The translations under genes were made by a program, and so were the position numbers. A stretch of 64,000 nucleotides of DNA from Watersipora subatra. Taxonomy: Eukaryota > Bryozoa > Gymnolaemata > Cheilostomatida > Watersiporidae. The stretch is from positions 56,189,526 to 56,253,525 of the forward strand of contig NC_088717.1 in the NCBI RefSeq assembly GCF_963576615.1. The letters run 5' to 3'. The notes beneath the pieces are model-generated. The model was not told where the DNA came from. It searched no databases and saw only the letters and a program-made list of their open reading frames with translations. Of the stretch, positions 1-37,004 are shown piece by piece (within the stretch, counting starts at the first letter, position 1; each line of letters starts with the position of its first letter).

Positions 1-849
1 AAAGCAAAACAAATATCTGCATCTTACAAAGTTTCACTTTGTAAGATCTTATATTTTTATCACACTTTATTGTTAGCAATGACTAGTCGTGTTAGACGCA
101 TTACAGTTTTTACTAATTTTAGATCTATGGACTTTGGGTGATTGTTATTGAACAATAATACTAATAAAAGTTATTACTCATATTTTATCAGTAATAATAA
201 TGCCACAAACTGTAATAATATTGATAAATCGTCCAACTCGGACACAATCGCAGTTTTTTGAAAATAAGCGAAAAATGGTATGTTCTCATTTTGCAATGCA
301 TTTGTAGTATTTTTCATTACATCAGCTACTGTAAATTTGTATAATAATTAATTTGGTACAAAAATGTTGTTGATAGACCGTGTGGTTCAAAAGTTATGAC
401 GATTTATATGCGCTCCTGACAAATATTAGGTTTTTTCGAAACCATAATTACTTGTAAAAAAATTAATTTGGTAGCGAAAAAGTTAATGAAGCACATACTG
501 ATGACTCATGATGATCTCTCACGATGCACGAGACTGCTTAGTGTACGTGTATAGAAGGAGACGTGATAATGGCAAAGGTTATTGAAATAGGTAAAGGGTA
601 GACAACTTTAATTATATAAAATATAAGTTTTTAACACGGGGATATATATTATGTATCTCCTTATAAATTTGGTATCTATATTATATACATACTCATGTAA
701 AAAGGAAGAAGGCAACATTTTTCTAAAAATTATAATTAATAAAAAAACATGAGCAAACAACTTCCGATCCAATCTTTAGTAAAATCTAGCAGTTACTTTT
801 ATGAAGAAAGTGAAAGTGGTGCAAAGTGAAAGTGAAAGTGGTGCAATGG

Positions 850-1400
850 AGATGGAACAACTCCCAAATTCATGACTGCAAATTGCTTTAATTACATTTT
901 GTATTTCAAGCCAATGTTAAGATTTTTCTACCAGATCTTCCCAATTTAAAGCTACTGGAAGCGATTCATGAGCAACAGTATTGGCATACTCGTCACCTGC
1001 GACTGTTGCTATTAGTGGTGACTCGTCTATCTTGTTTACGATTCGTGAAAATGGATCAGCAATATTTCTTGTACCACGTTGGACACTACACAAAATTTGA
1101 ATGACTGCAAACGCAAAGCATAGTGTTTTATTCTAGGCAGGGATTTAGTTTTCGGAGTGATGAATATGAATTTGGACTGTTATCATTTGAAACTTGGTTC
1201 CAACGAGGTACATCATAAAGTGTTCACAGTTCCAAACCAATGAAAGCGTCTTTCTCTCTGACTACCATTTTTCAATATTGGACAATGACGTATACCCATA
1301 AACAATAACGCAATCAACACCATTTTGAGTTTGTATAAGTACTGTATAAGTACTAAACCAAATAGACCTTTGTCTAAAAGAGTTTTACAGTTTGTCTAAA
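850..1400 (-). mobile_element. Ty3/Gypsy pol fossil in unit A
   Basis: Broken remnant of a Ty3/Gypsy pol gene, minus strand. It shows the RNase H end and the linker before the integrase, recognised by the match to the other units. It is shorter than the copies in units B-D. There are many breaks, so it is old; it was probably amplified as part of the array unit. Confidence 0.75.
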
Positions 1401-2469
1401 ACTGTACCCCAAGAATCAACTAGCGTTCATTACAACCAGCTGTTTTCTGTTTTTTTTGCCATATTAATACTCGGTGAGGTAGCTTCAATAACTTTTGAGA
1501 AGAATAAATGAAATTATTAATTTCACATATAGATGAGTTATCCTCTCTTCAGAAGCTCTGACTGAATGCTTTGCACGTGTGTTTAGTTCTGTTGTTGCTA
1601 TGGCAACTAATGTTTACATAATAATAATCTTATTATTCGCTAGAAGCATCTTATCTGACACAATGTATACTGAAAGACTACTTCTAACTCTCAACCTGAG
1701 GAGGATATATACAGATAGTCTAGTCACTAGTTTAAACATTTTAGCATTTTATATTTTCAAATTTATAAATGCATTTCTTTCTGTTATTAATTCCTAATTT
1801 TTTACAATTGAGTGAAGCTAGCTAATTTCCTTTACAACATTTTCTCTTCAATACTTAAAACATGTTTTTTTTTACAAAACACCATAAAATAACTTAAAAT
1901 ATTTAACTTAAAACCTTTTTTGAAAGAACATAAAATATAATAAAACTTAGTAAAAGTACCTCCTTTGACCTTCTCCACATCGGAATCAAATTACCCGGTT
2001 CTAGAATATCTTTTAAATCTGAGTTATTTGCTTATGATGCAATTTAGCATTGACATTACTTTACATCTACCGAAAATTCCTAAACTAATTAAAATATCAA
2101 GCGCAGCTACCTATACGGATGTTAGTTGTCTACTCCTTCCTACTCTATCCGCTGCTATGTTGATGCTAATGATCATACTAACAGATGCACATAGTGCTTC
2201 CTTATTGTAGTCCAATCGTTGGACAATTATAGTAGAAATTGTTTGAATTATTAATTATTCTTCACACAAAGTAAAGTTAATTACAGAATACTCTTAGCAA
2301 ATGAACTTGATGTTTGAATTATTGGACTGATTTCATGAAATTGCTGAGAAGTAAACAACAACATAGAACTTTCTAGAATAAACAAGCCCTATACATAACA
2401 GTAATGTCAAGAATGCACAGGTTCTACTTAAACTAGTGATGTCACAGATTTTGTTGAGATTACGCATTG

Positions 2470-2638
2470 CTGCTACCTGTGTCAAGTTGTATATCTCCCC
2501 TGCTCTCTAGCCTTCTCCAGCTGTTCGAATACTGAGCAAATACCCGCCGAGCAAGTTTTCTCACTCCTTTTGATAGCTTCCTCTGCTGTTCAACGCTCCG
2601 CCGCTGTGTTTCTCCGCTGCATACTGCCTAAAGTAATC
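2470..2638 (+). promoter_or_regulatory. Probable 5' noncoding exon and promoter region of array gene (copy A)
   Basis: A GC- and pyrimidine-richer block, conserved in all four units, ends in a strong donor (AATC|GTAAGT). An acceptor lies about 170 bp further on, directly before the ATG. A CRE-like TGATGTCACA sits at about 2437-2446. Equivalent donors follow 8374, 14086 and 20365. I infer a 5' untranslated exon; its start is not visible. Confidence 0.4.
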
Positions 2639-2816
2639 GTAAGTATTATCAAGTTACTCTATGATATAAACTGTTTGAAATATTTCGGTTAACAAACTCT
2701 TAACTTTGTTAATGACGATACTGACAAAAAAGAGAAAACTAGAATAGAGCTTGGTTAAGCTTCTTCATGGTCTTTATGTATGTTATAATAATATCATTTT
2801 TAAATTACAGAGCGAT

Positions 2817-3810
2817 ATGAGCATCCAGACATTGTGCCAATCGTGTAACGACAAATGGTGCGAAACATGCAACCTCAAACTTGCAAGAGATTTTGATAGG
2901 ACCAAACGTGAGTGTTATTTACTTATGCTGTTACGCTGATGCTACTTGCAGCTTGTGACTAACTGGGTCATATGTTTGGTCTTGTCAGCTTATTAATCTT
3001 GGTAAAGCTAAGCTTTAACAATGCCAATAAACAGACCTTAAGTTTTTGTAAAATACTGTTCTAGTTTTATTTCACATTAGATTTAAAACAAAACACTATT
3101 GGCTACTGGGAGGTACTGCTGACATATACAATGTCTTTGTATCCTTAGAAAACTAATCCTATAGTCATGTCATAAATGTTTCCATTACCAACACCTCTAA
3201 CAGTTGTGTTGTGATACTTTTATAATTTTAATTCCCGATTTACAGCAAAATAATAATTACAGCAAAATTTAACAGCAACATTTAAAGAAGGCGAGAGCTT
3301 CCACAATGTGTTACACTAAATAATAATCACCTAAAAGAATGTAGAGCAGCGCTGACACGCTATTACCTTCTCTTGATAGGTCCCCTCGAAGATATAAGAC
3401 CAAACGGTTACCACCAACCTTCAACGAGTTACCATCAAACTCCATCAACGTCGACTTCACCTCCTTTATCATCGTCTTTATCTACTTCACTTCCAGCGGC
3501 AGAGCCCAGTCCTATGAAAATCTACCGTGACTACGCTAACGACAACAATTTCAACGCCTATACACTCAGTGCAAGACGACCGATTCAACTTGACAGCTCG
3601 ACTAACACGCGACCTCGACAACTAGACTTGTGGAACGAGACGACTCAAACAATGACAAGAACAACCAATAATTTTACTCAAACGGAAACCAATACTACTG
3701 ACAAGGAGACATTGACTGACAATGTGACTACAGACACACCGACTTTGACGGACTGGGCCCTGCCGCTTTTTCATTTTTGTTTTTCCTCGTTTCTTCATTC
3801 ATTTCTTTAA
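2817..3810 (+). CDS. Array gene, copy A: 173-aa Cys4, Ser/Thr-rich protein of unknown function
   Basis: I do not recognise the family. The coding exons are 2817-2907 and 3380-3810. The first opens after acceptor TTACAG (ends 2810) with ATG at 2817 and ends at an AAAC|GTGAGT donor. The second follows GATAG and ends at TAA 3808-3810. The split codon restores Arg. A 5' noncoding exon probably ends at 2638 (donor GTAAGT), since ATG lies six bases inside the next exon. The protein starts with a CQSCNDKWCETC motif (C-x2-C-x4-C-x2-C, residues ~8-19), which could bind zinc. A Ser/Pro/Thr-rich stretch follows (~40-65), then a conserved block beginning MKIYRDYANDNNFNAY, a Thr/Asn-rich part (~115-145), and a hydrophobic C-terminus with three Phe pairs or singles. 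Copy A has the most private changes (for example MSIQT, LARDFDRTK). A tail anchor or mucin-like role is only a guess. Confidence 0.6.
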
Positions 3811-4156
3811 CAAATACATTTATTCCTTTCCTCTACACCAACTTATTAAGCTTGTTTCTATCCTTTTTTCCTTGTGGAATTCATTATAGCAATGCTAATA
3901 ACATATCACATTACTTCAACACCAAGCAGAAAAAATAACTGACGCATGGTTTGCTAGCAGCAGTTCAAAAACATGATTTAAGCAAGCTCTTTAATTGAAT
4001 TGATTTTTAAGGTGAAAATATTATTAGTATTTTGTGTAAAATATAGCTAATGAAAAATGTAACACTCACTACAGTTTATATGTACAGCTATTGATGTATT
4101 TTCGGAGGAACTGCGCAACACTAAATTATATCACACTCTGTAGTTATGCAATTAAG

Positions 4157-4186
4157 AATTATAAGCTAACTAACTAGCTTATAATT
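4157..4186. repeat. Perfect 12-bp inverted repeat, unit A
   Basis: AATTATAAGCTA and its exact reverse complement are separated by ACTAAC. It sits directly before the SINE. The same palindrome is found at 9891-9920 and 15617-15646, and not in unit D. Confidence 0.9.
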
Positions 4187-4197
4187 AGTTAGCATTA

Positions 4198-4392
4198 GTG
4201 GGAGCAGCTTTGTGGGTTCGGTGGTTAAGGCGCTGTCTTATGATCAGTAGGTTAGTGGTTCGAACCGCAGACGGACCATGAGTAGTGTTAGGAAACGCAA
4301 ACTGGTTCCCCATCCGTGCCCCAGCGTATATAAGAAGGGCAACTGGCACACCCGCGTGACTAAAAACAAAACCTGACAAAAAAAAACAGAGG
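4198..4392 (+). mobile_element. tRNA-derived SINE, unit A
   Basis: The head looks like a tRNA gene. A box A (TGGTTAAGGCG, 4222-4232) and a box B (GGTTCGAACCG, 4257-4267) lie at the spacing of a pol III type-2 promoter, with an anticodon-loop-like CTTATGA between them. A tRNA-unrelated body of about 100 bp follows and ends in an A-rich run near 4378-4387. It is not an intact tRNA: the sequence after box B does not close an acceptor stem with the start. No clear target-site duplication was found. Confidence 0.7.
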
Positions 4393-5929
4393 AGTCCCTC
4401 TATGAGCTAATAGACTGTACATGGTACTTATGAGGTCAGTAGGTCAATTGACCTCTCTGTCTGACATTCTATCACACTGTCACAAGAAACGTATTGTAGA
4501 ATTTGACTAGTAGTTTATGAGATATTTTAATAATCGTAGGTAACCATGGTGATCAATGTGCCTTCTTCCTAACCTTCTTCAAAGATCGGTTGCTAGAAGC
4601 TATAATTAGAGCAGTGTTTGTCTATCCGTCATCCGTTTGTCCAAAGCAAAACAAATATCTGCATGCATTGAGTCCATAAAAAATATATTAGCATCCCATT
4701 TTCAGCGTAGTTTCACTTTGTAAGATCTTATATTTTTATTACACTTTATTGTTAGCAATGACTAGTCGTGTTAGACGCATTACAGTTTTTACTAATTTTA
4801 GATCTATGGACTTTGGGTTATTGTTATTGAACAATAATACTAATAAAAGTTATTGCTCATATTTTATCTGTAATAATAATGCCACAAACTGTAATAATAT
4901 TGATAAATCGTCCAACTCGGACACGCTCGCAGTTCTTTTGAAAATGGTCGAAAAATGGTGTGTTCTCATTTTGCAATGCATTTGTAGTATTTTTCATTAC
5001 ATCAGATACTATAAATTTGTATAATAATTAATTTGGTACAAAATATTGTTGATAGGCCGTGTGGTTCAAAAGTTATGACGATTTATATGCGCCCCTGACA
5101 AATATTAGATTTTATCGAAATCATAATTACGTACTTGTAAAGAAATTAATTTGGTAGCGAAAAAGTTAACGAAGCACATACTGATTACTCATGATGATCT
5201 CTCACCATGCACGAGACTGCTGAGTGTACGTGTATAGAAGGAGAAGTGATAATGGCAAAAGTTATGGAAAAAGGTAAAGGGTAGACAACTTTAATTATAT
5301 AAAAGATAAGTTTTTAACAGGGGGATGTATATTATGTATCTCCCTATAAACTTGGTATATATGTTATATACATACTCATGTAAAAAGGAAGAAGGCAACA
5401 TTTTTCTAAAAATTATAACACTTAATAAAAAACATGAGCAAACAACTTCCTATTCAATATTTAGTAAAATCTAGCAGTTACTTTTATGAAGAAAGTGAAA
5501 GTGGTGCAAAGTAAATCAGGACTGAAATAACTAGAAATGGACAGACTAAAATATTTCAGTAATTACCGATAGAATTCAAAATAACAGTTATGAAAACAGC
5601 AGTATGTAGATAACCGAGTTATATAATTATTTAAATGTTACATAGTTTCTGTTAAACTAGCTTTGTATTTCTAGCTTTTCTATTTCTATTTCAGCTCACG
5701 ACTATTGTAGCGGATCCCTTGGTTCAAAGTTATGTTGTCACATACGGGTGATGAAGCATAGCGTATATTCTATTTATTATTTATGATTGTCAACCCCGTG
5801 AAAATACAATAAAACAATAACTTGATTGTCGATAAAAGGTTATTAAAAGTATGTTAATTATACAGTTGGTCATCTGTGAAGCCATTAGTAACATATAAAA
5901 TAAAACACCTAAAATGAAAGATATAACAT

Positions 5930-7140
5930 TTACCTTAATAACATATCCAGGAGATTGCTAAATAGTATGCGAGTCTCTTTCTGGTTAATGCTTGATTATA
6001 TATGTATATGACATTGGTGTAATGATGAAACATACCAATAAGAGAAACTATCAGCATTAAAAAACGGAGATGTTTTGAGTTACCGCACCCTTTGAGGTAC
6101 TCTTGAAACTCATGCGCAATAAATCGGCCCACTGTTCGTTCTTAAAATAGCACAAAAACCAAACCTGCAAAACACTGTGTTCAGGAATTCAATTTTTTTT
6201 CGCCTCGGAAGTTCAGATCCAAAAAATTCATACTCAAAATAGCGACGATAATAATCAATGACAACAATGACTGATTAACCATTTGGTAGAGGTCTTAAGA
6301 TATCTTGGACCAAGACCAAGGTTTGCCTGAAAACTTTGTCATAGAAACTGTTTGCGGTGGATCAAGTTGTGAAACAGTCATGCAATCTAAACGCTGAAGG
6401 CAATAGTTCTCAGCCTGTTTGTCAATACCTTTACTTCCGAGTCGCTGTTTGGTTTTGACAATTCCTTGATGTTCTTCACGTGGTAACTCTATCACACGCT
6501 CTCTCAAGCTTACAAGAATCATGATACGATTGCCTCTCAACAGCACTCCATTTTTGTCACTGAGCTCACTAGCTATAGATTTGAAAGAGGTGGAACAACT
6601 ACCAAATTCGTGACTGCAAATTGCTTTAATCACATTTTGTATTTCAAGCCAATGTTAAGATTTTTCTACCAGATCTTCCCAATTTAAAGCTACTGGAAGC
6701 GATTCATGAGCAAAAGTATTGGCATACTTGTCACCTTGGACTGTTGCTATCAGTGGTGACTCGTCTATCTTGTTTACGATTCGTGAAAATGGATCAGCAA
6801 TATTTCTTGTACCACGTTGGACACTACACGAAATTTGAATGACTGCAAACGCAAAGCCCAGTGTTTTATTCTAGGCAGGTATTTAGTTTTCGGAGTGATG
6901 AATATGAATTTGGACTGTTATCATTTGAAACTTGGTTCCAATGAGGTACATCATAAAGTGTTCACAGTTCCAAACCAATGAAAGCGTCTTTCTCTCTGAC
7001 TACCAATTTTCAATATTGGACAATGACGTATATCCATAAACAATAACGCGATCAACACCATTTGGAGTTTGTATAAGTACTGTATAAGTACTAAACCAAA
7101 TAGATCTCTGTCTAAAAGAGTTTTACAGTTCATCTAAAAC
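5930..7140 (-). mobile_element. Ty3/Gypsy pol fossil in unit B (RNase H, integrase)
   Basis: Broken pol remnant read on the minus strand. It includes a RNase H-like part, a linker with the family motif NIADPFSR, an integrase zinc-finger segment (HQGIVKTKQRL followed by a CxxRLDC-type pair) and the start of an integrase core. No flanking LTRs were recognised. It is degraded by several breaks and is clearly old. Confidence 0.85.
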
Positions 7141-8549
7141 TGTACCCCAAGAATCAACTAGTGCTCATTACAACAAGCTGTTTTCTGTTTTTTTGCCATA
7201 TTAATACTTGGTGAGGTAGCTTCAATAACTTTTGAGAAAAATAAATGAAATTATTAAATTCACATATAGATGAGTTATCCTCTCTTCAGAAGCTCTGACT
7301 GAATGCTTTCCATGCGTGTTTAGTTCTGTTGTTGCTATGGCAACTAATGTTTACACAATAATAATCTTATTATTCGCTACAAGCATCTTATCTGACACAA
7401 TGAATACTGAAAGACTACTTTTAACTCTCAACCTGAGGATGATATATACAGATAATCTAGCCACCAGTTTAAACATTTTAGCATTTTACATTCTCAAATT
7501 TATAAATGCATTTCTTTCTGTTATTAGTTCCTAATTTTTTACAATTGAGTGAAGCTAGCTAATTTCCTTTACGACATTTTCTCTTCAATACTTAAAACAT
7601 GTTTTTTTTACAAAATACGTTAAAATAACCTAAAATATTTAACTTAAAACCTTTCTTGAAAGAACATAAAATATAATAAAACTTAGTAAAATTACCTCCC
7701 TTGACCTTCTCCACATCGGAATCAAATTACCCGGTTCTAGAATATCTTTTAAATCTAAGTTATTTGCTTATGATGCCATTTAGCCAAGACATTACTTTAC
7801 ATCTACCGAAAATTCCTAAACTAATTAAAATATCAAGCGCAGCTACCTATACGGATGTTAGTTGTCTACTCCTTCCTACTCTATCCGCTGCTGTGTTGAT
7901 GCTAATGATCATACTAACAGATGCACATAGTGCTTCCTTATTGTAGTCCAACCGTTAGACAATTATAGTAGAAATTGTTTGAATTATTAATTATTCTTCA
8001 CACAAAGTAAAGTTAATTACAGAATACTCTTAGCAAATGAACTTGATGTTTAAATTATTGGACTGATTTCATGAAATTGCTGAGAAGTAAAAAACAACAT
8101 AGAACTTTCTAGAATAAACAAGCCCTATACATAACAGTAATGTCAAGAATGCACAGGTTCTACTTAAACTAGTGATGTCACAGAATTTGTTGAGATTACG
8201 TATTGCTGCTACCTGTGTCAAGTTGTATATCTCCCCTGCTCTCTAGCCTTCTCCAGCTGTTCGAATACTGAGCAAATACCCGCTGAGCAAGTTTTCTCAT
8301 TCCTTTTGATAGCTTCCTCTGCTGTTCAACGCTTCGCCGCTGTTTTTCCCCGCTGCATACTGCCTAAAGTAATCGTAAGTATTATCAAGTTACTCTATGA
8401 TATAAACTGTCTGAAATATTTCGGTTAACAAACTCTTAACTTTGTTAACAATACTGACAAGAAAGAGTAAACTAGAATAGAGCTTGGTTAAGCTTATTTA
8501 TGGTCTTTATGTATGTTATAATAGTATCATTTTTAAATTACACAGCGAG

Positions 8550-9543
8550 ATGAGCACCCAGACATTGTGCCAATCGTGTAACGACAAATGGTGCGAAACA
8601 TGCAACCTCAAATTTGCAAGAAATTTTGATGGGACCAAACGTGAGTGTTATTTACTTATGCTGTTACGCTGATGCTACTTGTAGCTTGTGACTAACTTGG
8701 TTATATGTTTGGTCTTGTCAGCTTATTAACCTTGGTAAAGCAAAGCTTTAACAATGCCAATAAACAGACCTTAATTTCTTGTAAAACACTGTTCTAGTTT
8801 TATTTCACATTAGATTTAAGACAAAACACTATTGGCTACTGGGAGGTACTGCTGACATATACAATGTCTTTGTATCCTTAGAGAATTAATCCTATAGTCA
8901 TGTCATAAATGTTTCCATTATCAACACCTCTAACAGTTGTGTTGTGTTACTTTTATAATTTTATTTCCAGATTTACAACAAAATAATAATTACAGCAAAA
9001 TTTAACAGCAAAATTTTAAGAAGGCGAGAGCTTCCGCAATGTGTTACACTAAATAATAATCACCTAAAAGAATGTAGAACAGCGCTGACACGCTATTACC
9101 TTCTCTTGATAGGTCCCCTCGAAGATATAAGACCAAACGGTTACCACCAGCCTTCAACGAGTTACCTTCAAACTCCATCAACCTCGACTTCACCTCCTTT
9201 ATCATCGTCTTTATCTACTTCACCTCCAGCGGCAGAGCCCAGTCCTATGAAAATCTACCGTGACTACGCTAACGACAACAATTTTAACGCCTATATACTC
9301 AGTGCAAGACGACCGATTCAACTTGACAGCTCGACTAACACGCGACCTCGACGACTGGACTTGTGGAATGAGACGACTCAAACAACGACAACAACAACCA
9401 ATAATTTTACTCAAACGGAAACCAATACTACTGACAAGGAGACATTGACTGACAATGTGACTACAGACAGACCGACTTTGACGGACTGGGCCCTGCCGCT
9501 TTTTCATTTTTGTTTTTCTTCGTTTCTTCATTCATTTCTTTAA
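8550..9543 (+). CDS. Array gene, copy B: 173-aa Cys4, Ser/Thr-rich protein
   Basis: Second copy of the array gene, with exons 8550-8640 and 9113-9543 (91 and 431 nt, exactly as in the other copies). The first coding exon sits behind a slightly changed acceptor (TTACACAG). The donor AAAC|GTGAGT and the acceptor GATAG are unchanged. The upstream noncoding exon would end at 8374 (AATC|GTAAGT). The protein keeps the CQSCNDKWCETC motif, the MKIYRDYANDNNFNAY block, the SARRPIQLDSSTNTRPR block and the hydrophobic tail. It differs from copy C mainly at single Ser/Thr-region residues. The function is unknown. The intact frame, conserved splice sites and constant length support a real gene over a chance reading frame. 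Confidence 0.62.
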
Positions 9544-9890
9544 CAAATACATTTATTCCTTTCCTCCACACCAACTTATTAAGCTTGTTTCTATCCTTTT
9601 TTCCTTGTGGAAATCATTATAGCAATGCTAATAACATATCACATTACTTCAACACCAAGCAGAAAAAATAACTGGCGCATGGTTTGCTAGCAACAGTTCA
9701 AAAACATGATTTAAGCAAGCTCTTCAATTGAATTGATTTTTAAAGGTGAAAATATTATTAGTATTTTGTGCAAAATATAGCTAATGAAAAATGTAACACT
9801 CACTACAGTTGATATGAACAGCTATTGATGTATTTTCGGAGGAACTGCGCAACACTAAATTATATCACACTCTGTAGTTATACAGTTAGG

Positions 9891-9920
9891 AATTATAAGC
9901 TAACTAACTAGCTTATAATT
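9891..9920. repeat. Perfect 12-bp inverted repeat, unit B
   Basis: Same palindrome as at 4157-4186, again about a dozen bases before the SINE head. Confidence 0.9.
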
Positions 9921-9931
9921 AGTTAGCATTA

Positions 9932-10126
9932 GTGGGAGCAGCTTTGTGGGTTCGGTGGTTAAGGCGCTGTCTTATGATCAGTAGGTTAGTCGTTCGAACC
10001 GCAGATGGACCATGAGTAGCGTTAGGAAAGGCAAACTGGTTCCCCATTCGTGCCCCAGCGTATATAAGAAGGGCAACTAGCACACCCGTGGGACTGAAAA
10101 CAAAACCTGACAATAAACAGAGGAGT
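9932..10126 (+). mobile_element. tRNA-derived SINE, unit B
   Basis: Counterpart of the unit A SINE, with the same box A and a box B changed by one base (CGTTCGAACC). The body is nearly the same. It sits at the same place in the unit, so it was probably duplicated with the unit and not inserted independently. Confidence 0.7.
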
Positions 10127-11659
10127 CCCTCTGTGAGCTGATAGACTGTACATAGTACTTATGAGGTCAATAGGTCAATTGACCTCTCTGTCTGACATTC
10201 TACAACACTGTCACAAGAAACGTATTGTAGAATTTGACTAGTAGTTTATGAGATATTTTAATAAGCGTCGGTAACCTTGGTGATCAACGTGCCTTCTTCA
10301 TAACCTTCTTCAAAGATCGGTTGCTAGAAGCTATAATTAGAGCAGTGTTTGTCCATCCGTCATCCGTTTGTCCAAAGCAAAACAAATATCTGCATGCGTT
10401 GAGCCCATAAAAATATATTAGCATCCCATTTTCAGCGTAGTTTCACTTTGTAAGATCTTATATTTTTATCACACTTTATTGTTAGCAATAACTAGTCATG
10501 TTAGACGCATTACAGTTTTTACTAATATTAGATCTATGGACTTTGGGTGATTGTTATTGAACAATAATACTAATAAAAGTTATTACTCATATTTTATCAG
10601 TAATAATAATGCCACAAACTGTAATAATATTGATAAATCATCCAACTCAGACACGCTCGCAGTTGTTGTTGAAAATGGTCGAAAAATGGTATGTTCTCAA
10701 TTTGCAATGCATTTGTAGTATTTTTCATTACATCAGCTACTGTAACTTTGTATAATAATTAATCTGGTACAAAAATACTGTTGATAGACCGTGTGGTTCA
10801 AAAGTTATGACGATTTATATGCGCCCCTGACAAATATTAGATTTTATCGAAACCATAATTACTTGTAAAAAAATTAATTTGGTAGCGAAAAAGTTAATGA
10901 ATCACATACTGATAACTCATGACGATCTCTCACGATGCACAAGACTGCTGAGTGTACATGTATAGAAGGAGATTTGATAATGGCAAAAGTTATTGAAATA
11001 GGTAAAGGGTAGACAACTTTAACTATATAAAAGATAAGTTTTTAACAAGGATATGTATATTATCTATCTCCCTATAAATTTGGTACAAATATTATATACA
11101 TACTCATGTAAAAAGGAAGAAGGCAACATTTTTCTAAAAATTATAACAATTAATAAAAAAACATGAGCAAACAACTTCCGATCCAATATTTAGCAAAATC
11201 TAGCAGTTACTTTTATGAAGAAAGTGAAAGTGGTGCAAAGTAAATCAGGACTGAAATAACTAGAAATGGACAGACTAAAATATGTCAGTAATTAACGATA
11301 AAATTCAAAATAACAGTTTTGAAAACAGCAGTATGTAGATAACCGAGTTATATATTAATTTAAATGTTACATAGTTTCTTTTAAACTAGCTTTGTATTTC
11401 TAGCTTTTCTATTTCTATTTCAGCTCACGGGTATTGTAGCGGATCCCCTGGTTCATAGTTATGTTGTCACATACGAGTGATGAGGCATAGCGTATATTCT
11501 ATTCAAATTTATTATTTATGCTTGTCAACCCAGTGAAACTACAATAAAACAATAACTTGATTGTCGATAAAACGTTATTGAAAGTATGTTAATTATACAG
11601 TTGGTCATCTGTGAAGCCATTGGTAACATATAAAATAAAACACATAAAATGAAAGATAT

Positions 11660-12860
11660 ATCATTTACCTTAATAAAACATCCAGGAGATTGCTAAATAG
11701 TATGCAATTCTCTTTCTAGTTAATACTTGGTTATATATGTACGTATATAATATAAGAGAAACTATCAGCATTGAAAAACGGAAATGTTTTGAGTTACCGC
11801 ACCCCTTGAGGTAATCTTGAAACTCATGCGCAATAAATTGGCCCACTGTTCATTCGTAGCATGGCACAAAAACCAAACCTGCAAAACACTGTGTTCAAGA
11901 ATTCAATTTTTTTTCGCTCTAGAAGTTCGGATCCAAAAAATTCATACTCAAAATAGCGATGATAATAATCAATGACAACAATGACTGATTAACCATTTGG
12001 TAGAGGTCTTAAGATATTTTGGACCAAGACCAAGGTTTGCCTGAAAACTTTGTCATAGAAACTGTTTGCAGTGGATCAAGTTGTGAAACAGTCATGCAAT
12101 CTAAACGCTGAAGGCAATAGTTCTCAGCCTGTTTATCAATACCTTTACTTCCGAGTCGCTGTTTGGTTTTGACAATTCCTTGATGTTCTTCACATGCTAA
12201 CTCTATCACACGCTCTCTCAAGCTTACAAGAATCATGATACGATTGCCTCTCAACAGCACTCCATTTTTGTCACTGAGCTCACTAGCTATAGATTTGAAA
12301 GAGGTGGAACAACTCCCAAAGTCATGACTGCAAATTGCTTTAATCACATTTTGTATTTCAAGCCAATGTTAAGATTTTTCTACCAGATCTTCCCAATTTA
12401 AAGCTACTGGAAGCGATTCATGAGCAACAGTATTGGCATACTCGTCACCTACGACTGTTGCTATTAGCGGTGACTCGTCTATCTTGTTCACCATTCGTGA
12501 AAATAGATCAGCAATATTTCTTGTACCACGTTGGACACTACACGAAATTTGAATGACTGCAAACGCAAAGCATAGTGTTCTATTCTAGGCAGGGATTTAG
12601 TTTTCGGAGTGATGAATATGAATTTGTACTGTTATCATTTGAAACTTGGTTCCAACGAGGTACATCGTAAAGTGTTCACAGTTCCAAACCAATGAAAGCG
12701 TCTTTCTCTCTGACTACCATTTTTCAATATTGGACAATGACGTACACCCATAAACAATAACGCGATCAACACCATTTTGAGTTTGTATAAGTACTGTATA
12801 AGTACTAAACCAAATAGACCTCTGTCTAAAAGAGTTTTACAGTTTGTCTAAAACTGTACC
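11660..12860 (-). mobile_element. Ty3/Gypsy pol fossil in unit C
   Basis: Same remnant as in unit B at the same place in the unit, on the minus strand: RNase H part, linker, integrase zinc-finger segment and part of the core. It is broken in several places. Its position inside the repeat unit shows it was present before the array expanded. Confidence 0.85.
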
Positions 12861-14264
12861 CCAAGAATCAACTAGTGTTGATTACAACCAGCTGTTTTCT
12901 GTTTTTTTTTGCCATATTAATACTTGGTGAGGTAGCTTCAATAACTTTTGAGAAGAATAAATGAAATTATTAAATTCACATATAGATGAGTTATCCTCTC
13001 TTCAGAAGCTCTGACTGAATGCTTTGCACGTGTGTTTAGTTCTGTTGTTGCTATGGCAACTAATGTTTACACAGTAATAATCTTATTATTCGCTACAAGC
13101 ATCTTATCTGACACAATGTATACTGAAAGACTACTTCTAACTCTCAACCTAAGGAGGATATACGCAGATAATCTAGCCGCCACGAGTTTAAACATTGTAT
13201 ATTTTCAAATTTATAAAACCATTTCTTTCTGTTATTAATTCCTAATTTTTTACAATTGAGTGGAGCTAGCTAATTTCCTTTACACCATTTTCTCTTCAAT
13301 ACATAAAACGTGTTTTTTTTACAAAATACGTTAAAATAATCTAAAATATTTAACTTAAAACCTTTCTTGAAAGAACATAAAATATAATAAAACTTAGTAA
13401 AATTACTTCCTTTGACCTTCTCCATATCGGAATCAAATCACCCGGTTCTAGAATATCTTTTAAATCTAAGTTATTTGCTTATGATGCCATTTAGCACTGA
13501 CATTACTTTACATCTACCGAAAAATTCCAAAACTAATTAAAATATCAAGCGCAGCTACCTATACGTATGTTAGTTGTCTACTCCTTCCTACTCTATCCGC
13601 TGCTGTGTTGATGCTAATGATCATACTAACAGATTCACATAGCGCTTCCTTATTGTAGTCCAACCGTTAGACAATTATAGTAGAAATTGTTTGAATTATT
13701 TATTATTCTTCACACAAAGTAAAGTTAATTACAGAATACTCTTAGCAAATGAACTTGATGTTTAAATTATTGGACTGATTTCATGAAATTGCTGAGAAGT
13801 AAACAACAACATAGAACTTTCTAGAATAAACAAGCCCTATACATAACAGTAATGTCAAGAATGCACAGGTTCTACTTAAACTAGTGATGTCACAGAATTT
13901 GTTGAGATTACGTATTGCTGCTACCTGTGTCAAGTTGTATATCTCCCCTGCTCTCTAGCCTTCTCCAGCTGTTCGAATACTGAGCAAATACCCGCTGAGC
14001 AAGTTTTCTCACTCCTTTTGATAGCTTCATCCGCTGTTCAACTCTTCGCCGCTGTTTTTCTCCGCTGCATACTGCCTAAAGTAATCGTAAGTATTATCAA
14101 GTTACTCTATGATATAAACTGTTTGAAATGTCTCGGTTAACAAACTCTTAACTTTGTCAATGACGATACTGACAAGAAAGAGTAAACTAGAATAGAGCTT
14201 GGTTAAGCTTCTTCATGGTCTTTATGTATGTTATAATAATATCATTTTTAAATTACAGAGCGAG

Positions 14265-15257
14265 ATGAGCACCCAGACATTGTGCCAATCGTGTAACGAC
14301 AAATGGTGCGAAACATGCAACTACAAATTTGCAAGAAGTTTTGATGGGACCAAACGTGAGTGTTATATACTTATGCTGTTACGCTGATGCTACTTGTAGC
14401 TTGTGACTAACTGGGTTATATGTTTGGTCTTGTCAGCTTATTAACCTTGGTAAAGCTAAGCTTTAACAATGCCAGTAAACAGACTTTATTTTTTGTAAAA
14501 TACTGTTCTAGTTTTATTTCACATTAGATTTAAAACAAAACACTATTGGCTACTGGGAGGTACTGCTGAAATATACAATGTCTTTGTATCCTTAGAAAAT
14601 TAATCCTATAGTCATGTCATAAATGTTGCCATTACCAACACCTCTAACAGTTGTGTTGCGATACTATTATAATTTTAATTCCCGATTTACAGCAGAATAA
14701 TAATTACAGCAAAATTTAACAGCAAAATTTTAAGAAGGCGAGAGCTTGCACAATGTGTTACACTAAATAATAATCACCTAAAAGATTGTAGAGCAGCGCT
14801 GACACACTATTACCTTCTCTCGATAGGTCCCCTTGAAGATATAAGACCAAACGGTTACCACCAACCTTCAACGAGTTACCATCAAACTCCATCAACCTCG
14901 ACTTCACCTCCTTTATCATCGTCTTTATCTACTTCACCTCCAGCGGCAGAGCCCAGTCCTATGAAAATCTACCGTGACTACGCTAACGACAACAACTTCA
15001 ACGCCTATATACTCAGTGCAAGACGACCGATTCAACTTGACAGCTCGACTAACACGCGACCTCGACGACTGGACTTGTGGAACGAGACGACTCAAACGAC
15101 GACAAAAACAACCAATAATTTTACTCAAACGGAAACCAATACTACTGACAAGGAGACATTGACTGACAATGTGACTACAGACAGACCGACTTTGACGGAC
15201 TGGGCCCTGCCGCTTTTTCATTTTTGTTTTTCCTCATTTCTTTATTCATTCCTTTAA
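14265..15257 (+). CDS. Array gene, copy C: 173-aa Cys4, Ser/Thr-rich protein
   Basis: Third copy, with exons 14265-14355 and 14827-15257 (91 and 431 nt). The acceptor before exon 2 is CTCGATAG. The noncoding 5' exon would end at 14086. The N-terminal Cys4 motif is unchanged, followed by NYKFARSFDGTK where B and D have NLKFARNFDGTK. The Thr run carries one Lys, and the tail has LYSFL for LHSFL. The sequence directly after the stop also differs slightly, but the stop falls at the same codon. Surrounding noncoding sequence in this unit has several small indels relative to B and D, whereas this 522-nt coding part has none. Confidence 0.6.
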
Positions 15258-15616
15258 TAAATACATTTATTCCTTTTTTCCACACCAACTTATTGAGCTT
15301 GTTTCTATACTTTTTTCCTTGTGGAATTCATTATAGCAATGCTAATAACATATCACATTACTTCAACACCAAGCAGAAAAAATAACTGGCGCATGGTTTG
15401 CTAGCAGCAGTTCAAAAACATGATTTAAGCAAGCTTTTTAATTGAATTGATTTTTAAAGGTGAAAATATTATTAGTATTTTGTGCAAAATATAGCTAATG
15501 AAAAATGTAACACTCACTACAGTTGATATATACAGCTATTGATGTATCTTCGGAGGAACTGCGCATTGATGTATCTGCGGAGAAACACTAAATTATATCA
15601 CAGTCTGTAGTTATGC

Positions 15617-15646
15617 AATTATAAGCTAACTAACTAGCTTATAATT
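15617..15646. repeat. Perfect 12-bp inverted repeat, unit C
   Basis: Same palindrome as at 4157-4186, before the SINE of unit C. Confidence 0.9.
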
Positions 15647-15654
15647 AGTTAGCA

Positions 15655-15852
15655 TTAGGGGGAGCAGCTTTGTGGGTTCAGTGGTTAAGGCGCTGGCTTA
15701 TGATCAGTAGGTTAGTGGTTCGAACCGCAGACGGACCATGAGTAGTGTTAGGAAAGGCAAACTGGTTCCCCATCCGTGCCCCAGCGTATATAAGAAGGGC
15801 AACTAGCACACCCGCAGGACTGAAAACAAAACCTGACAAAAAACAGAGGAGC
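15655..15852 (+). mobile_element. tRNA-derived SINE, unit C
   Basis: Third array copy, with box A and box B as in unit A. The tail is AAAAAACAGAGG. It stands 125 bp before the segment that is special to unit C. Confidence 0.7.
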
Positions 15853-15977
15853 CCCTCTGTAAGCCAATAGAATGTACATAGTACTTATGAAGTCAGTAGG
15901 TCAGTTGACCTGTCTGTGTGACATTCTACAACACTGTCACAAGAAACGTATTGTAGAATTTGACTAGTAGTTTATGA

Positions 15978-16503
15978 ATGTATTGGGAGAAATTTTTAGT
16001 AATTCAAACATGGACTATGTTGATTTGTTTACTGTAATCTATTACGAAGCGTACGGTCGTCACTACATTAATCGCAACTAATATCTACAATTGACGGAGT
16101 TCTCATCACCTAGCAACACTATTGAGTTGAAGGCTAGCGAACATTCTCATTGGATAAGGACTTCATTGCGTGCAGAACTCAAGCAGACTTGTGAAGCAAC
16201 GCTATGCTAAAGCATGAAGAAAAGCGCGACGTACACACATTGTTCAGTTTTAAAGTATCAAGCCTAAGTCAATAGCTGTGGGTCAGTTTTTTTAATTACA
16301 CGAACATCAAACGCTAAAAGGACCAGTAGTTTTTGTAAGTAGAAACTAACATACTTATTTTATCTAGCTTTGAAATTTATTATAGTTATAACTGTTCTGT
16401 CAATTTACATGTATACTCTACTAATATGATTGACAGCACGATGTGTTAAGATTAATAAAGAACCAGAACATATATCTTACCATCCGTTGATTTTACTGGA
16501 TAG
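15978..16503. other. Unit-C-specific 526-bp segment
   Basis: Between TTTATGA and TTTAATAAGCG, units A and B have only about five bases, whereas unit C has 526 bp of other sequence. I found no gene, terminal repeats or clear target duplication. It could be an insertion in C or ancestral sequence lost from A and B. Unit D ends too early to decide. Confidence 0.7.
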
Positions 16504-17899
16504 TTTAATAAGCGTAGGTAACCTTGGCGATCAACGTGCCTTCTTCATAACCCTCTTCAAAGATCGGTTGCTAGAAGCTATAATTAGAGCAGTGTTTGTC
16601 CATCCGTCGTCCGTTTGTCCAAAGCAAAACAAATATCTGCATGCGTTGAGCCCATAAAAATATATTAGCATCCCATTTTCAGCGTAGTTTCACTTTGTAA
16701 GATCTTATATTTTTATCACACTTTATTGTTAGCAATAACTAGTCGTGTTAGACGCATTACAGTTTTTACTAATATTAGATCTATGGACTTTGGGTGATTG
16801 TTATTGAACAATAATACTAATAAAAGTTATTACTCATATTTTATCAGTAATAATAATGCCACAAACTGTAAGAATATTGATAAAGCATCCAACTCGGACA
16901 CGCTCGCAGTTGTTGTTGAAAATGGTCGAAAAATGGTATGTTCTCAATTTGCAATGCATTTGTAGTATTTTTCATTACATCAGCTACTGTAAATTTGTAT
17001 AATAATTAATTTGGTACAAAAATATTGTTGATAAACCGTGTGGTTCAACAGTTATGACGATTTATATGCGCCCCTGACAAATATTAGGTTTTATCGAAAC
17101 CATAATTACTTTTAAAAAATTTAATTTGGTAGCGAAAGAGTTAATGACGTGCATACTGATGACTCATGATGATCTCTCACGATGCAGGAGTCTGCTGAGT
17201 GTACGTACATGTATATAGAAAGAGACGTGATAATGGCAAAAGTTATTGAAATAGGTAAAGGGTAGACAACTTTAATTATATAAAATATAAGTTTTTAACA
17301 AGGGGATATATATTATGTATCTCCCTATAATTTTGATATATATATTATATACATACTCATGTTAAAAGGAAGAAGGCTACATTTTTCTAAAAATTATAAC
17401 AATTAATAAAAAAACATGAGCAAACAACTTCCGATCCAATATTTAGTAAAATCTAGCAGTTACTTTTATGAAGAAAGTGAAAGTGGTGCAAAGTAAATCA
17501 GGACTGAAATAACTAGAAATGGACAGACTAAAATATCTCAGTAATTAACGATAGAATTCAAAATAACAGTTATGAAAACAGCAGTATGTAGATAACCGAG
17601 TTATATATTAATTTAAATGTTACATAGTTTCTTTTCAACTAGCTTTGTATTTCTAGCTTTTCTATTTCTATTTCAGCTCACGAGTATTGAAGCGAATCCT
17701 TTGGTTCAAAGTTATGTTGTCACATACGGGTGATGAGGCATAGCGTATATTCTATTCAACTTTATTATTTATGCTTGTCAACCCCGTGAGACTACAATGA
17801 AACAATATCTTGATTGTCGATAAAGGGTTATTGAAAGTATGTTAATTATACAGTTGGTCATCTGTGAAGCCATTAGTAACATATAAAATAAAACACCTA

Positions 17900-19120
17900 A
17901 AATTAAAGATATAACATTTACCTTAATAACACATCCAGGAGATTGCTAAATAGTATGCGAGTCTCTTTCTGGTTAATGCTTGATTATATATGTATATGAC
18001 ATTGGTGTAATGATGAAACATACCAATAAGAGAAACTATCAGCATTACAAAACGGAGATGTTTTGAGTTACCGCACCCCTTGAGGTACTCTTGAAACTCA
18101 TGTGAAATAAATTGGCCCACTGTTCGTTCTTAGCATGGCACAAAAACCAAACCTGAAAAACACTGTGTTCAGGAATTCAATTTTTTTTCGCTCTAGAAGT
18201 TCAGATCCAAAAAATTCATACTCAAAATAGCGATGATAATAATCAATGACAACAATGACTGATTAACCATTTGGTAGAGGTCTTAAGATATTTTGGACCA
18301 AGACCAAAGTTTGCCTGAAAACTTTGTCATAGAAACTGTTTGCGGTGGATCAAGTTGTGAAACAGTCATGCAATCTAAACGCTGAAGGCAATAGTTCTCA
18401 GCCTGTTTATCAATACCTTTACTTCCGAGTCGCTGTTTGGTTTTGACAATTCCTTGATGTTCTTCACATGCTAACTCTATCACACGCTCTCTCAAGCTTA
18501 CAAGAATCATGATACGATTGCCTCTCAACAGCACTCCATTTTTGTCACTGAGCTCACTAGCTATAGATTTGAAAGAGGTGGAACAACTCCCAAATTCATG
18601 ACTGCAAATTGCTTTAATTACATTTTGCATTTCAAGCCAATGTTAAGATTTTTCTACCAGATCTTCCCAATTTAAAGCTACTGGAAGCAATTCATGAGCA
18701 ACAGTATTGGCATACTCGTCACCTGCGACTGTTGCTATTAGTGGTGACTCGTCTATCTTGTTTACCATTCGTGAAAATGGATCAGCAATATTTCTTGTAC
18801 CACGTTGGACACTACACGAAATTTGAATGACTGCAAATGCAAAGCCCAGTGTTTTATTCTAGGCAGGTATTTAGTTTTCGGAGTGATGAATATGAATTTG
18901 GACTGTTATCATTTGAAACTTGGTTCCAACGAGGTACATCATAAAGTGTTCACAGTTCCAAACCAATGAAAGCGTCTTTCTCTCTGACTACCATTTTTCA
19001 ATATTGGACAATGACGTACACCCATAAACAATAATGCGATCAACACCATTTTGAGTTTGTATAAGTACTGTATAAGTACTAAACCAAATAGACCTTTGTC
19101 TAAAAGAGTTTTACAGTTTG
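17900..19120 (-). mobile_element. Ty3/Gypsy pol fossil in unit D
   Basis: Fourth copy of the array-borne pol remnant, minus strand, with the same parts as in units B and C and a similar degree of decay. It lies 1.4 kb upstream of the exons of array gene copy D and in the opposite orientation. Confidence 0.85.
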
Positions 19121-20540
19121 TCTAAAACTGTACCCCAAGAATCAACTAGTGTTCATTACAACCAGCTGTTTTCTGTTTTTTTTTGCCATATTAATACTTG
19201 GTGAGGTAGCTTCAATAACTTTTGAGAAGAATAAATGAAATTATTAAATTCACGGATAGATGAGTTATCATCTCTTCAGAAGCTCTGACTGAATGCTTTG
19301 CACGTGTGTTTAGTTCTGTTGTTGCTATGGCAACTAATGTTTACACAGTAATAATCTTATTATTCGCTAGAAGCATCTTATCTGACACAATGTACACTGA
19401 AAGACTACTTCTAACTCTCAACCTGAGGATGATATATACAGATAATCTAGCCACCAGTTTAAACATTTTAGCATTTTATATTTTCAAATTTATAAAACCA
19501 TTTCTTTCTGTTATTAATTCCTAATTTTTTACAATTGAGTGAAGCTAGCTAATTTCCTTTACGACATTTTCTCTTCAATACGTGAAACGTGTTTTTTTTT
19601 ACGAAATACGTTAAAATAACTTAAAGTATTTAACTTAAAACTTTTCTTAAAAGAACATAAAATATAATAAAACTTTGTAAAATTACCTCCTTTGACCTTC
19701 TCCACATCGGAATCAAATTACCCGGTTCTAGAATATCTTTTAAATCTAAGTTATTTGCTTATGATGCTATTTAGCATTGACATTACTTTACATCTACCGA
19801 AAATTCCAAAACTAATTAAAATATCAAGCGCAGCTACCTATACGTATGTTAGTTGTCTACTCCTTCCTACTCTATCCGCTGCTGTGTTGATGCTAATGAT
19901 CATACTAACAGATTCACATAGCGCTTCCTTATTGTAGTCCAACCGTTAGACAATTATAGTAGAAATTGTTTGAATTATTAATTATTCTTCACACAAAGTA
20001 AAGTTAATTACAGAATACTCTTAGCAAATGAACTTGATGTTTAAATTATTGGACTGATTTCATGAAATTGCTGAGAAGTAAACAACAACATAGAACTTTC
20101 TAGAATAAACAAGCCCTATACATAACAGTAATGTCAAGAATGCACAGGTTCTACTTAAACTAGTGATGTCACAGAATTTGTTGAGATTACGTATTGCTGC
20201 TACCTGTGTCAAGTTGTATGTCTCTCTTGCTCTCTAGCCTTCTCCAGCTGTTCGAATACTGAGCAAATATCCGCTGAGCAAGTTTTCTCACTCCTTTTGA
20301 TTGCTTCATCCGCTGTTCAACGCTTCGCCGCTGTTTTTCTCCGCTGCACACTGTCTAAAGTAATCGTAAGTATTATCAAGTTACTCTATGATATAAACTG
20401 TTTGAAATGTCTCGGTTAACAAACTCTTAACTTTGTTAACAATACTGACAAGAAAGAGTGAAAAAGAATTGAGCTTGGTTAAGTTTCTTCATGGTCTTTA
20501 TGTAGGTTAAAATAATATCATTTTTAAATTACAGAGCGAG

Positions 20541-21533
20541 ATGAGCACCCAGACATTGTGCCAATCGTGTAACGACAAATGGTGTGAAACATGCAACCTC
20601 AAATTTGCAAGAAATTTTGATGGGACCAAACGTGAGTGTTATTTACTTATGCTGTTACACTGATGCTACTTGTAGCTTGTGACTAACTGGGTTATATGTT
20701 TGGTCTTGTCAGCTTATTAACCTTGGTAAAGCTAAGCTTTTACAATGCCAACAAACAGACCTTATTTTTTGTAAAATACTGTTCTAGTTTTATTTCACAT
20801 TAGATTTAAAACAAAACGCTATTGGCTACTGGGAGATACTGCTGACATATACAATGTCTTTGTATCCTTAGAAAATTAATCCTATAGTCATGTCATAAAT
20901 GTTTCCATTACCAACACCTCTAACAGTTGTGTTGTGATACTCTTATGATTTTAATTCCCGATTTACAGCAGAATAATAATTACAGCAAAATTTAACAGCA
21001 AAATTTTAAGAAGGCGAGGTCTTCCACAATGTGTTACACTAAATAATAATCACCTAAAAAAATAAAGAGCAGCGCTGACACGCTATTACCTTCTCTTGAT
21101 AGGTCCCCTCGAAGATATAAGACCAAACGGTTACCACCAACCTTCAACGAGTGACCATCAAACTCCATCAACCTCGACTTCACCTCCTTTATCATCGTCT
21201 TTATCTACTTCACCTCCAGCGGCAGAGCCCAGTCCTATGAAAATCTACCGTGACTACGCTAACGACAACAACTTCAACGCCTATATACTCAGTGCAAGAC
21301 GACCGATTCAACTTGACAGCTCGACTAACACGCGACCTCGACGACTGGACTTGTGGAACGAGACGACTCAAACAACGACAACAACAACCAATAATTTTAC
21401 TCAGACGGAAACGACTACGACTGACAAGGAGACTATAACTGACAATGTGACTACAGACAGACCGACTTTGACGGACTGGGCTCTGCCGCTTTTTCATTTT
21501 TGTTTTTCTTCGTTTCTTCATTCATTTCTTTAA
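20541..21533 (+). CDS. Array gene, copy D: 173-aa Cys4, Ser/Thr-rich protein
   Basis: Fourth copy, at the right edge of the array, with exons 20541-20631 and 21103-21533 (91 and 431 nt). The upstream noncoding exon would end at 20365 (TAATC|GTAAG). Exon 1 gives the same 30 residues as copy B. In the Thr-rich part a cluster of changes (TETTTTDKETIT for TETNTTDKETLT) mixes silent and replacement changes. The unit ends about 340 bp after the stop and has no palindrome or SINE, so this copy could differ in its 3' end. No AATAAA directly after the stop is conserved in all four copies, so the polyadenylation site is undecided. Confidence 0.6.
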
Positions 21534-21872
21534 ATAATACATCTATTCCTTTCCTCTACACCAACTTATTAAGCTTGTTTCTATTTTTCTTGTGGAGTTC
21601 ATTATAGCAATGCTAATAACATATCACATTACTTCAACACCAAGCAGAAAAAATAACTGGCGCATGGTTTGCTAGCAACAGTTCAAAAACATGATTTAAG
21701 CAAGCTCTTTAATTGAATTGATTTTTAAAGGTGAAAATATTATTAGTATTTTGTGCAAAATATAGCTAATGAAAAATGTAACACTCACTACAGTTTACAT
21801 GTACAGCTATTGAAATATCTTTGCAGGAACTGCACAACACTTATTTATTTCGCAGCCTGTAGTCATACAGTT

Positions 21873-36996: not shown

Positions 36997-37004
36997 TATT
37001 ATTG

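What the first reader, a model, noticed from the sequence alone, without database searches (positions are those of the whole stretch)
1..21872. Tandemly amplified spliced gene family of unknown function
Four ~5.7 kb units each carry the same gene with conserved splice sites and a 522-nt coding part that is open and of identical length in all four. Seen directly: units, donors, acceptors, frames. Inference: a lineage-specific expanded gene family. The two conserved blocks (Cys4 motif, KIYRDYANDNNFNAY block) match no family I know.
Basis: partly seen in the sequence, partly recalled or inferred. Interest (0 to 1): 0.75.

Follow-up and report, generated by a model that had tools for sequence, protein, structure and literature searches.

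The report
Many-copy orphan gene family in bryozoan
Four neighbouring near-identical genes in the red ripple bryozoan belong to a large, real, but undescribed gene family spread over most of its chromosomes, whose small protein may work as an adaptor clamped together by a common cellular hub protein.

Summary
Four tandem copies (start codons 5,733, 5,715 and 6,276 bp apart) each carry a 522-nt spliced reading frame. The window lies on chromosome 10 of Watersipora subatra, a bryozoan. The four are part of a family with 149 or more matching exon-3 stretches on 10 of 11 chromosomes, in arrays with different repeat lengths. Between subfamilies, many with near-saturated silent sites, the protein (dN/dS 0.18-0.36), the intron position and, in most members, a promoter element (ACTRGTGATGTCACAGA: 52 exact sites in 784 Mb, all at family loci or relics) are kept. 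So it is a gene family under selection, not a chance frame; a mobile element is unlikely. No convincing Pfam, NCBIfam, PHROG or PDB relative was found. The protein looks mostly disordered: a cysteine knuckle, a Ser/Thr/Pro linker, a conserved block, two conserved TQT motifs 10-13 residues apart, and a C-terminal hydrophobic helix. The TQT pair matches the anchor of binding sites for the dimeric hub LC8. My best mechanism is an LC8-dimerised zinc-knuckle adaptor. LC8 binding, expression and cellular role are untested.

The parts
2432..2448 (+). upstream (promoter-like) element ACTAGTGATGTCACAGA (CRE-like core TGATGTCA, recalled), copy 1
2639..2810 (+). probable intron 1 (5' untranslated exon to coding exon 2), copy 1; donor TAATC|GTAAGT, acceptor TTACAG
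   Evidence: inferred, no RNA
2817..2907 (+). exon 2 coding part, cysteine knuckle, copy 1
2908..3379 (+). intron 2 (phase 1), copy 1
3380..3810 (+). exon 3 coding part: S/T/P linker, conserved block, two TQT motifs, C-terminal hydrophobic helix, copy 1
8168..8184 (+). upstream element, copy 2
8550..8640 (+). exon 2 coding part, copy 2
9113..9543 (+). exon 3 coding part, copy 2
   Evidence: structure model of 9115-9540
13880..13896 (+). upstream element, copy 3
14265..14355 (+). exon 2 coding part, copy 3
14827..15257 (+). exon 3 coding part, copy 3
20159..20175 (+). upstream element, copy 4
20541..20631 (+). exon 2 coding part, copy 4
21103..21533 (+). exon 3 coding part, copy 4

Best explanation
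A multigene family of a bryozoan, spread by tandem and segmental DNA duplication and kept by purifying selection. Each gene has its own family-specific upstream element, a probable 5' untranslated exon and two coding exons. SHOWN from sequence: copy number, gene structure, selection, conservation of the cysteine knuckle, TQT pair and tail. INFERRED: the small, largely disordered protein is an adaptor. Its N-terminal cysteine knuckle (probably zinc) and conserved YRDYAND block bind partners; the two TQT motifs are inserted as strands into the LC8 (DYNLL) dimer, pairing two adaptor chains side by side; the C-terminal hydrophobic helix docks on a membrane or in a protein groove. Many copies under one type of promoter would give high, coordinated dose.
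For: Copy number: 149 matches at E<=0.001 (150 of 245 candidates scored) on C1-C5 and C7-C11. Splicing: GT lies exactly one base past the codon of the conserved Lys in 37 of 37 loci in which an exon-2 match was found. Selection: dN/dS 0.18-0.36 between subfamilies, 31 models; pN/pS for exon 2 alone 0.39, tail 0.32, linker 0.75 (21 pairs of 7 representatives). TQT: TQT1 is intact in 28 of 31, TQT2 in 29 of 31; the two Gln are kept in 30 of 31 each, whereas the other five Gln of copy 2 are kept in at most 18 of 31. Q-to-Q distance 10-13, i.e. 2-5 residues between 8-residue motifs (two rows mis-picked by the script corrected by eye), comparable with the linkers of 1, 3 and 6 residues given for ASCIZ (PMC10046861, passages). 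WSEGTQTD in the C8 subfamily resembles the optimised LC8 ligand VSRGTQTE quoted in PMC6607443 (passages). The genome holds one full-length open match to the dynein light chain family. AlphaFold on exon 3 of copy 2: low confidence except a C-terminal helix (residues 123-141); the TQT region appears as two strands of low confidence. Upstream element: 52 exact sites, 0 for the reversed control; 47 of 52 lie upstream of a listed family exon on the same strand.
Against: No RNA evidence. No LC8 binding test; PMC6607443 reports that many TQT peptides do not bind, that binders often have a larger positive residue at -3 (Glu in site 1 of all 31 models) and that a bulky hydrophobic -2 residue limits binding (Phe, Tyr or Leu in site 2 of most models). 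PMC10046861 links a 3-residue linker with heterogeneous binding. The match was not shown to be LC8 rather than another light chain. The structure model is one sequence deep, mean pLDDT 55.6. The tail is only moderately hydrophobic (best 19-residue Kyte-Doolittle mean 0.98-1.55 in 7 representatives), so a membrane anchor is doubtful. The first Cys of the knuckle shifts place between subfamilies. Among five copies of the window array (U1-U4, L010) coding divergence (0.029-0.050) is about as high as intron divergence (0.023-0.055), so recent copies may be under weak constraint. The upstream element is exact in 15 of 20 aligned members, changed at 1-2 places in three and not recognisable in L045 and L048.
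Confidence: 0.45

Rival explanations
1. The unit is a mobile element or its passenger: a non-autonomous transposon whose cargo gene keeps its frame because the element needs it.
For: High copy number on 10 of 11 chromosomes, many decayed copies; an open frame between the genes (6298-6654 minus strand, repeated at 12012 and 18286) looks, from memory, like a Gypsy integrase (not tested).
Against: Closely related arrays on C11 and C9 share about 90% identity over nearly the whole 4.8-kb stretches fetched, coding and non-coding, as segmental duplication gives. No match of the protein to a transposon protein family in Pfam. No intronless copy among the matches scored. But terminal repeats and target-site duplications were not searched for systematically.
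Confidence: 0.1
2. The TQ sites are not LC8 sites but phosphorylation sites of ATM/ATR-type kinases (an SQ/TQ cluster), and the protein is a damage- or stage-regulated disordered signalling protein.
For: Two conserved TQ sites (three in the window copies that begin MSTQT or MSIQT-like) in a disordered Thr-rich protein; the kinase site is S/T-Q (recalled).
Against: The Thr after Gln is kept as well (29 of 31 in site 1, 31 of 31 in site 2), which a TQ kinase site does not need but the LC8 anchor does.
Confidence: 0.15
3. A fast-turnover family in a genetic conflict or recognition role (germ line, genome defence or colony recognition), in which many copies matter for diversity rather than dose; the biochemistry may be as above or different.
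For: Arrays of different age, frequent pseudogenes (29 of the 105 strongest matches carry stops, counted by eye), high pN/pS (0.75) in the linker. A precedent for TQT-LC8 dimerisation in genome defence is Panoramix (PMC7861614, passages).
Against: No sign of positive selection: all averaged ratios are below 1; no site test was run. No expression or polymorphism data.
Confidence: 0.2
4. Exon 3 alone is translated from the conserved Met76 (98 aa) and exon 2 is not part of the protein.
For: Met76 is among the slowest sites; the exon-3 frame is open upstream of the acceptor in several copies.
Against: Exon 2 is conserved as protein (pN/pS 0.39), keeps ATG, cysteines and donor, and can be joined in phase 1 in 34 of 44 sources tried.
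Confidence: 0.07

Closest known systems
ASCIZ/ATMIN (LC8-regulating transcription factor)
   Same: zinc-binding N-terminal part (recalled) followed by a disordered region with several TQT-type LC8 motifs, some with short linkers (PMC10046861, passages)
   Different: ASCIZ has C2H2 fingers (recalled) and, in Drosophila, seven motifs; here one short cysteine knuckle, two motifs, a C-terminal hydrophobic helix and 173 aa. No direct sequence comparison with ASCIZ was made
Panoramix of the Drosophila piRNA pathway
   Same: two conserved TQT motifs close together, dimerised by LC8/Ctp (PMC7861614, passages)
   Different: no direct sequence comparison made; Panoramix is single-copy and has no such knuckle or tail (recalled)
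BIM (BCL2L11)
   Same: disordered protein with an LC8 TQT motif and a hydrophobic C-terminus (recalled; LC8 affinity of the BCL2L11 peptide 0.16 uM in PMC6607443)
   Different: no BH3 motif seen by eye; BIM has no such cysteine knuckle (recalled)
Lineage-specific gene duplications of bryozoans in general
   Same: thousands of lineage-specific duplications per bryozoan genome are reported (3501-9388; PMC13326412, passages)
   Different: the passages seen name no family of this kind

Membership tests
Multigene family under selection (real genes) | several diverged members with conserved gene structure and dN/dS below 1 | tested here: met
Multigene family under selection (real genes) | expression as spliced mRNA | not testable with these tools
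   no RNA data held; search for a spliced retrocopy found none
LC8 (DYNLL) binding partners | TQT anchor in a disordered region, conserved | tested here: met
   28/31 and 29/31; low-confidence model outside the tail
LC8 (DYNLL) binding partners | favourable flanks: polar -4, positive -3, no bulky -2, P/D/E at +2 | tested here: inconclusive
   polar -4 in site 1 yes; -3 not positive in site 1; Phe/Tyr/Leu at -2 in site 2 of most models; +2 D/E in some
LC8 (DYNLL) binding partners | binding measured | not testable with these tools
   needs calorimetry or pull-down
Cys4 zinc-binding knuckle | four cysteines in paired spacing kept across the family | tested here: inconclusive
   three cysteine columns largely constant, the first one shifts place; 4-7 Cys in the first 31 residues of 7 representatives
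Tail-anchored membrane protein | C-terminal segment hydrophobic enough to span a membrane | tested here: inconclusive
   helix predicted but KD19 only 0.98-1.55
Transposon protein | match to a transposase, integrase, RT or gag family | tested here: not met
   Pfam and PDB
Pfam VG15 (PF25310) | score over the gathering cut-off of 26 bits | tested here: not met
   13.6 bits, E 0.075 for copy 1; best E among the 10 rows of A1 0.029

The most novel reading that the evidence does not exclude
A previously undescribed animal protein family in which a cysteine knuckle, a tandem pair of LC8 sites and a C-terminal hydrophobic helix are fused in one small disordered chain and expressed in concert from dozens of near-identical CRE-like promoters, forming LC8-laced scaffolds with a conflict-driven role (for example transposon silencing by enforced dimerisation, as Panoramix does in flies).
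Probability: 0.1. Interest if true: 0.7.

Novelty: new member of a known kind. Interest (0 to 1): 0.42.

Why it matters
Large orphan families are easily set aside as repeats; in this one, selection, gene structure and a family-wide upstream element can be read from a single genome, and the TQT pair turns 'unknown function' into a peptide-binding test. If true, it would be an independent case of recruitment of LC8 as a dimerisation hub. It also warns of repeat-masking errors: decayed copies have seeded satellites (C7, C1).

Tried and rejected
Sponge origin of the genome: rejected, 49 innexin-family matches. COX1 search for a mitochondrial contig: nothing found. Rfam: no match in the window; tRNA scan: none. 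Viral contigs and bacterial/archaeal genome contigs: no relative of A1 (19 and 9 pattern matches, none confirmed). Retrocopies: no match contiguous over the exon 2/3 junction among 137 listed (150 of 197 candidates scored; the rows covering query 7-97 run into intron sequence). Second gene inside the units: open frames of the fetched C9 spacers (7.1 of about 9.6 kb, 4.2 of about 4.9 kb) are short and unremarkable by eye; the 15-kb units of C11 were read only in part, so a second gene there is not excluded. The three upstream-element sites without a good exon match (C10:13829553, 55445178, 27188797) turned out to be decayed family copies. The script mis-picked the second motif in two rows (U1, L010: distance 4); by eye both are 11. 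Rows dropped: of 44 sources (40 loci L009-L048 and 4 window units) 10 gave no spliced model (L009, L017, L020-L024, L039, L046, L047); of 34 models three were left out of the alignment (L032: the script took a wrong acceptor; L045, L048: degenerate), leaving 31. PADLOC was not searched; PHROGs was searched with exon-3 rows only. Searches for print: searches list no paper on this family; only open-licence PMC papers were searched and listings read.
Full report
What the window is. The window is G000:C10:56189526-56253525 of a 783,720,542-base genome. The lengths of C1, C2, C7, C8, C9, C10 and C11 agree with chromosomes 1, 2, 7, 8, 9, 10 and 11 of Watersipora subatra tzWatSuba1.1 (79.35, 77.13, 66.31, 65.55, 64.04, 61.08, 46.06 Mb; PMC12902671, passages read), a cheilostome bryozoan. 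The species name is thus inferred from the assembly span and seven chromosome lengths.

The observation. Four copies are 94-95% identical. ATG spacings are 5,733, 5,715 and 6,276 bp. Two further copies on the same strand lie upstream of the window at 56157778 and 56183337, and two on the other strand, beyond its end, at 56275025 (partial, with stops) and 56283347.

The family. A translated search with the last 98 residues gave 149 matches at E<=0.001, 150 of 245 candidates being scored, so this is a lower bound for stretches, though some copies give more than one; they lie on C1-C5 and C7-C11. Of the 105 strongest rows (E<=1.2e-16) 76 have no stop inside (counted by eye). Arrays differ in spacing: about 4.9 kb in part of C9:29-30 Mb, about 9.6 kb in two runs at C9:48.0-48.2 Mb, mostly about 15 kb at C11:11.5-11.7 Mb, and irregular, often 10-13 kb, at C10:18 Mb; further clusters at C8:35.8-36.1, C10:55-58, C10:49 and C7:0.5 Mb. 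An exon-2 search found 80 matches at E<=1, the weaker of which may be chance, and a search with the most distant subfamily again reached these clusters (150 matches, 150 of 231 candidates scored).

Gene structure. I fetched 40 loci and with the four window copies tried 44 models; 34 could be spliced, 31 were used (the dropped ones are named under Tried and rejected). In all 37 loci in which an exon-2 match was found a GT lies exactly one base past the codon of the conserved Lys, so the intron is phase 1 and splits an Arg or Cys codon (Ser in the degenerate L048); the script required this phase for a model. Upstream, in an alignment of 20 members, 16 carry a GTAAG donor at the same place after a TAA.. 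stretch, and an acceptor precedes the ATG in most; the C9:29 Mb members do not show this pattern clearly. The element GTGATGTCACAGA is exact in 15 of the 20, changed at 1-2 places in three and not recognisable in L045 and L048; in the window it begins 382-385 bp before the ATG, elsewhere roughly 330-530 bp (worked out by eye). The 17-mer ACTRGTGATGTCACAGA occurs 52 times in the genome, its reversed control 0 times. Forty-seven of the 52 lie before a family exon listed or 40 on the same strand; two lie by family fragments of the opposite strand at C10:49.3 Mb; three (C10:13829553, 27188797, 55445178) are decayed family copies. Its core TGATGTCA resembles a CRE/bZIP site (recalled, not tested).

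Selection. Nei-Gojobori dN/dS is 0.18-0.36 between subfamilies where dS is measurable and 0.21-0.46 within them; for two subfamily pairs dS is saturated throughout and for others in part. By region, pN/pS over 21 pairs of 7 representatives is 0.39 (exon 2), 0.75 (linker), 0.37 (conserved block), 0.42 (TQT region), 0.32 (tail). Against this, among five copies of the window array coding and intron divergence are similar, so constraint on each recent copy may be weak even though dN/dS among them is 0.33.

Mode of spread. C11 and C9:48 Mb arrays share about 90% identity through nearly the whole fetched 4.8 kb, non-coding included, and no spliced retrocopy was found. This fits DNA-level segmental and tandem duplication. 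Copy 2 aligns with the C10:18, C11, C9:48 and C8 subfamilies only in pieces between 8158 and 9791, i.e. from the upstream element to the 3' flank, and with the C9:29 subfamily not at all at the DNA level. Terminal repeats and target-site duplications were not looked for systematically.

The protein. Exon 2 encodes a cysteine knuckle (CX2CX4CX2C in the window; the first Cys shifts in other subfamilies). Exon 3 encodes a linker, the YRDYAND block, STNTR..LDLWNE, TQT twice, and DWALP..HFC..SF...L at the end; Ser, Thr, Pro, Asn and Gln make 47-55% of the middle of 7 representatives. The two TQT glutamines are kept in 30 of 31 models each; no other glutamine of copy 2 exceeds 18 of 31. The spacing is 10-13 residues (two rows corrected by eye). 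AlphaFold on the exon-3 product of copy 2 without relatives gave mean pLDDT 55.6, a C-terminal helix 123-141 (block means 74-90) and two low-confidence strands over the TQT pair. No convincing relative by sequence: Pfam PF25310 best E 0.029 (13.6 bits for copy 1 against a 26-bit cut-off), PDB 36za_qp (phage baseplate) E 0.012, which I take as compositional without a test; nothing better in NCBIfam or PHROGs.

Mechanism. LC8 is a dimer that takes 8-residue, mostly TQT-anchored strands from disordered partners (PMC6607443, passages); multivalent partners form duplex scaffolds, with linkers from 1 residue upward in ASCIZ (PMC10046861, passages), and Panoramix shows that LC8 dimerisation through two TQT motifs can be functionally decisive (PMC7861614, passages). 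The genome has one full-length open dynein-light-chain match and one partial one with a stop. The anchor rule is met; flank rules are met only in part. Hence: adaptor dimerised by LC8, shown up to conservation and likely disorder, inferred beyond. The role in the animal is open.

Novelty. Orphan tandem families are common (general knowledge), and bryozoans are reported to have thousands of lineage-specific duplications (PMC13326412, passages). I found no description of this family (listings of searches). I file it as a new member of a known kind, with an unusual and testable combination of parts.

Noticed in passing
L052 1-1607 (C7:19305000-19306606) and C7:19.23-19.31 Mb: A 192-bp tandem satellite (8.4 copies in the stretch read) is made of the 3' coding end of a decayed member of this gene family.
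   Followed up: partly
L051 (C1:53086000-53088200): Another decayed member whose 3' coding end is repeated in tandem about every 331 bp.
   Followed up: partly
window 6298-6654, 12012-12368, 18286-18642 (minus strand): Open frame that looks, from memory, like a Gypsy-type integrase zinc-binding region, repeated between the genes.
   Followed up: no
window 4205-4270: tRNA-like A-box/B-box sequence (GGTTAAGG...GGTTCGAACC), perhaps a SINE head; its two parts recur singly at 9957 and 15717. ARAGORN calls no tRNA.
   Followed up: no
window 22580-22821, 23141-23733, 26793-27941, 31064-31488, 54361-54971: Long minisatellites with 30-, 20-, 26-, 15- and 21-bp units, 8 to 44 copies.
   Followed up: no
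window 26000-37000 (minus), 43000-46200 (plus), 59400-61050 (minus): Exons that read, from memory, as CCDC39-like coiled coil, thrombospondin type-1 repeats and dyskerin.
   Followed up: no
C10:49.2-49.4 Mb (L023, L024): Decayed copies in which exon 2 and exon 3 matches face opposite strands, some in blocks that look duplicated.
   Followed up: no
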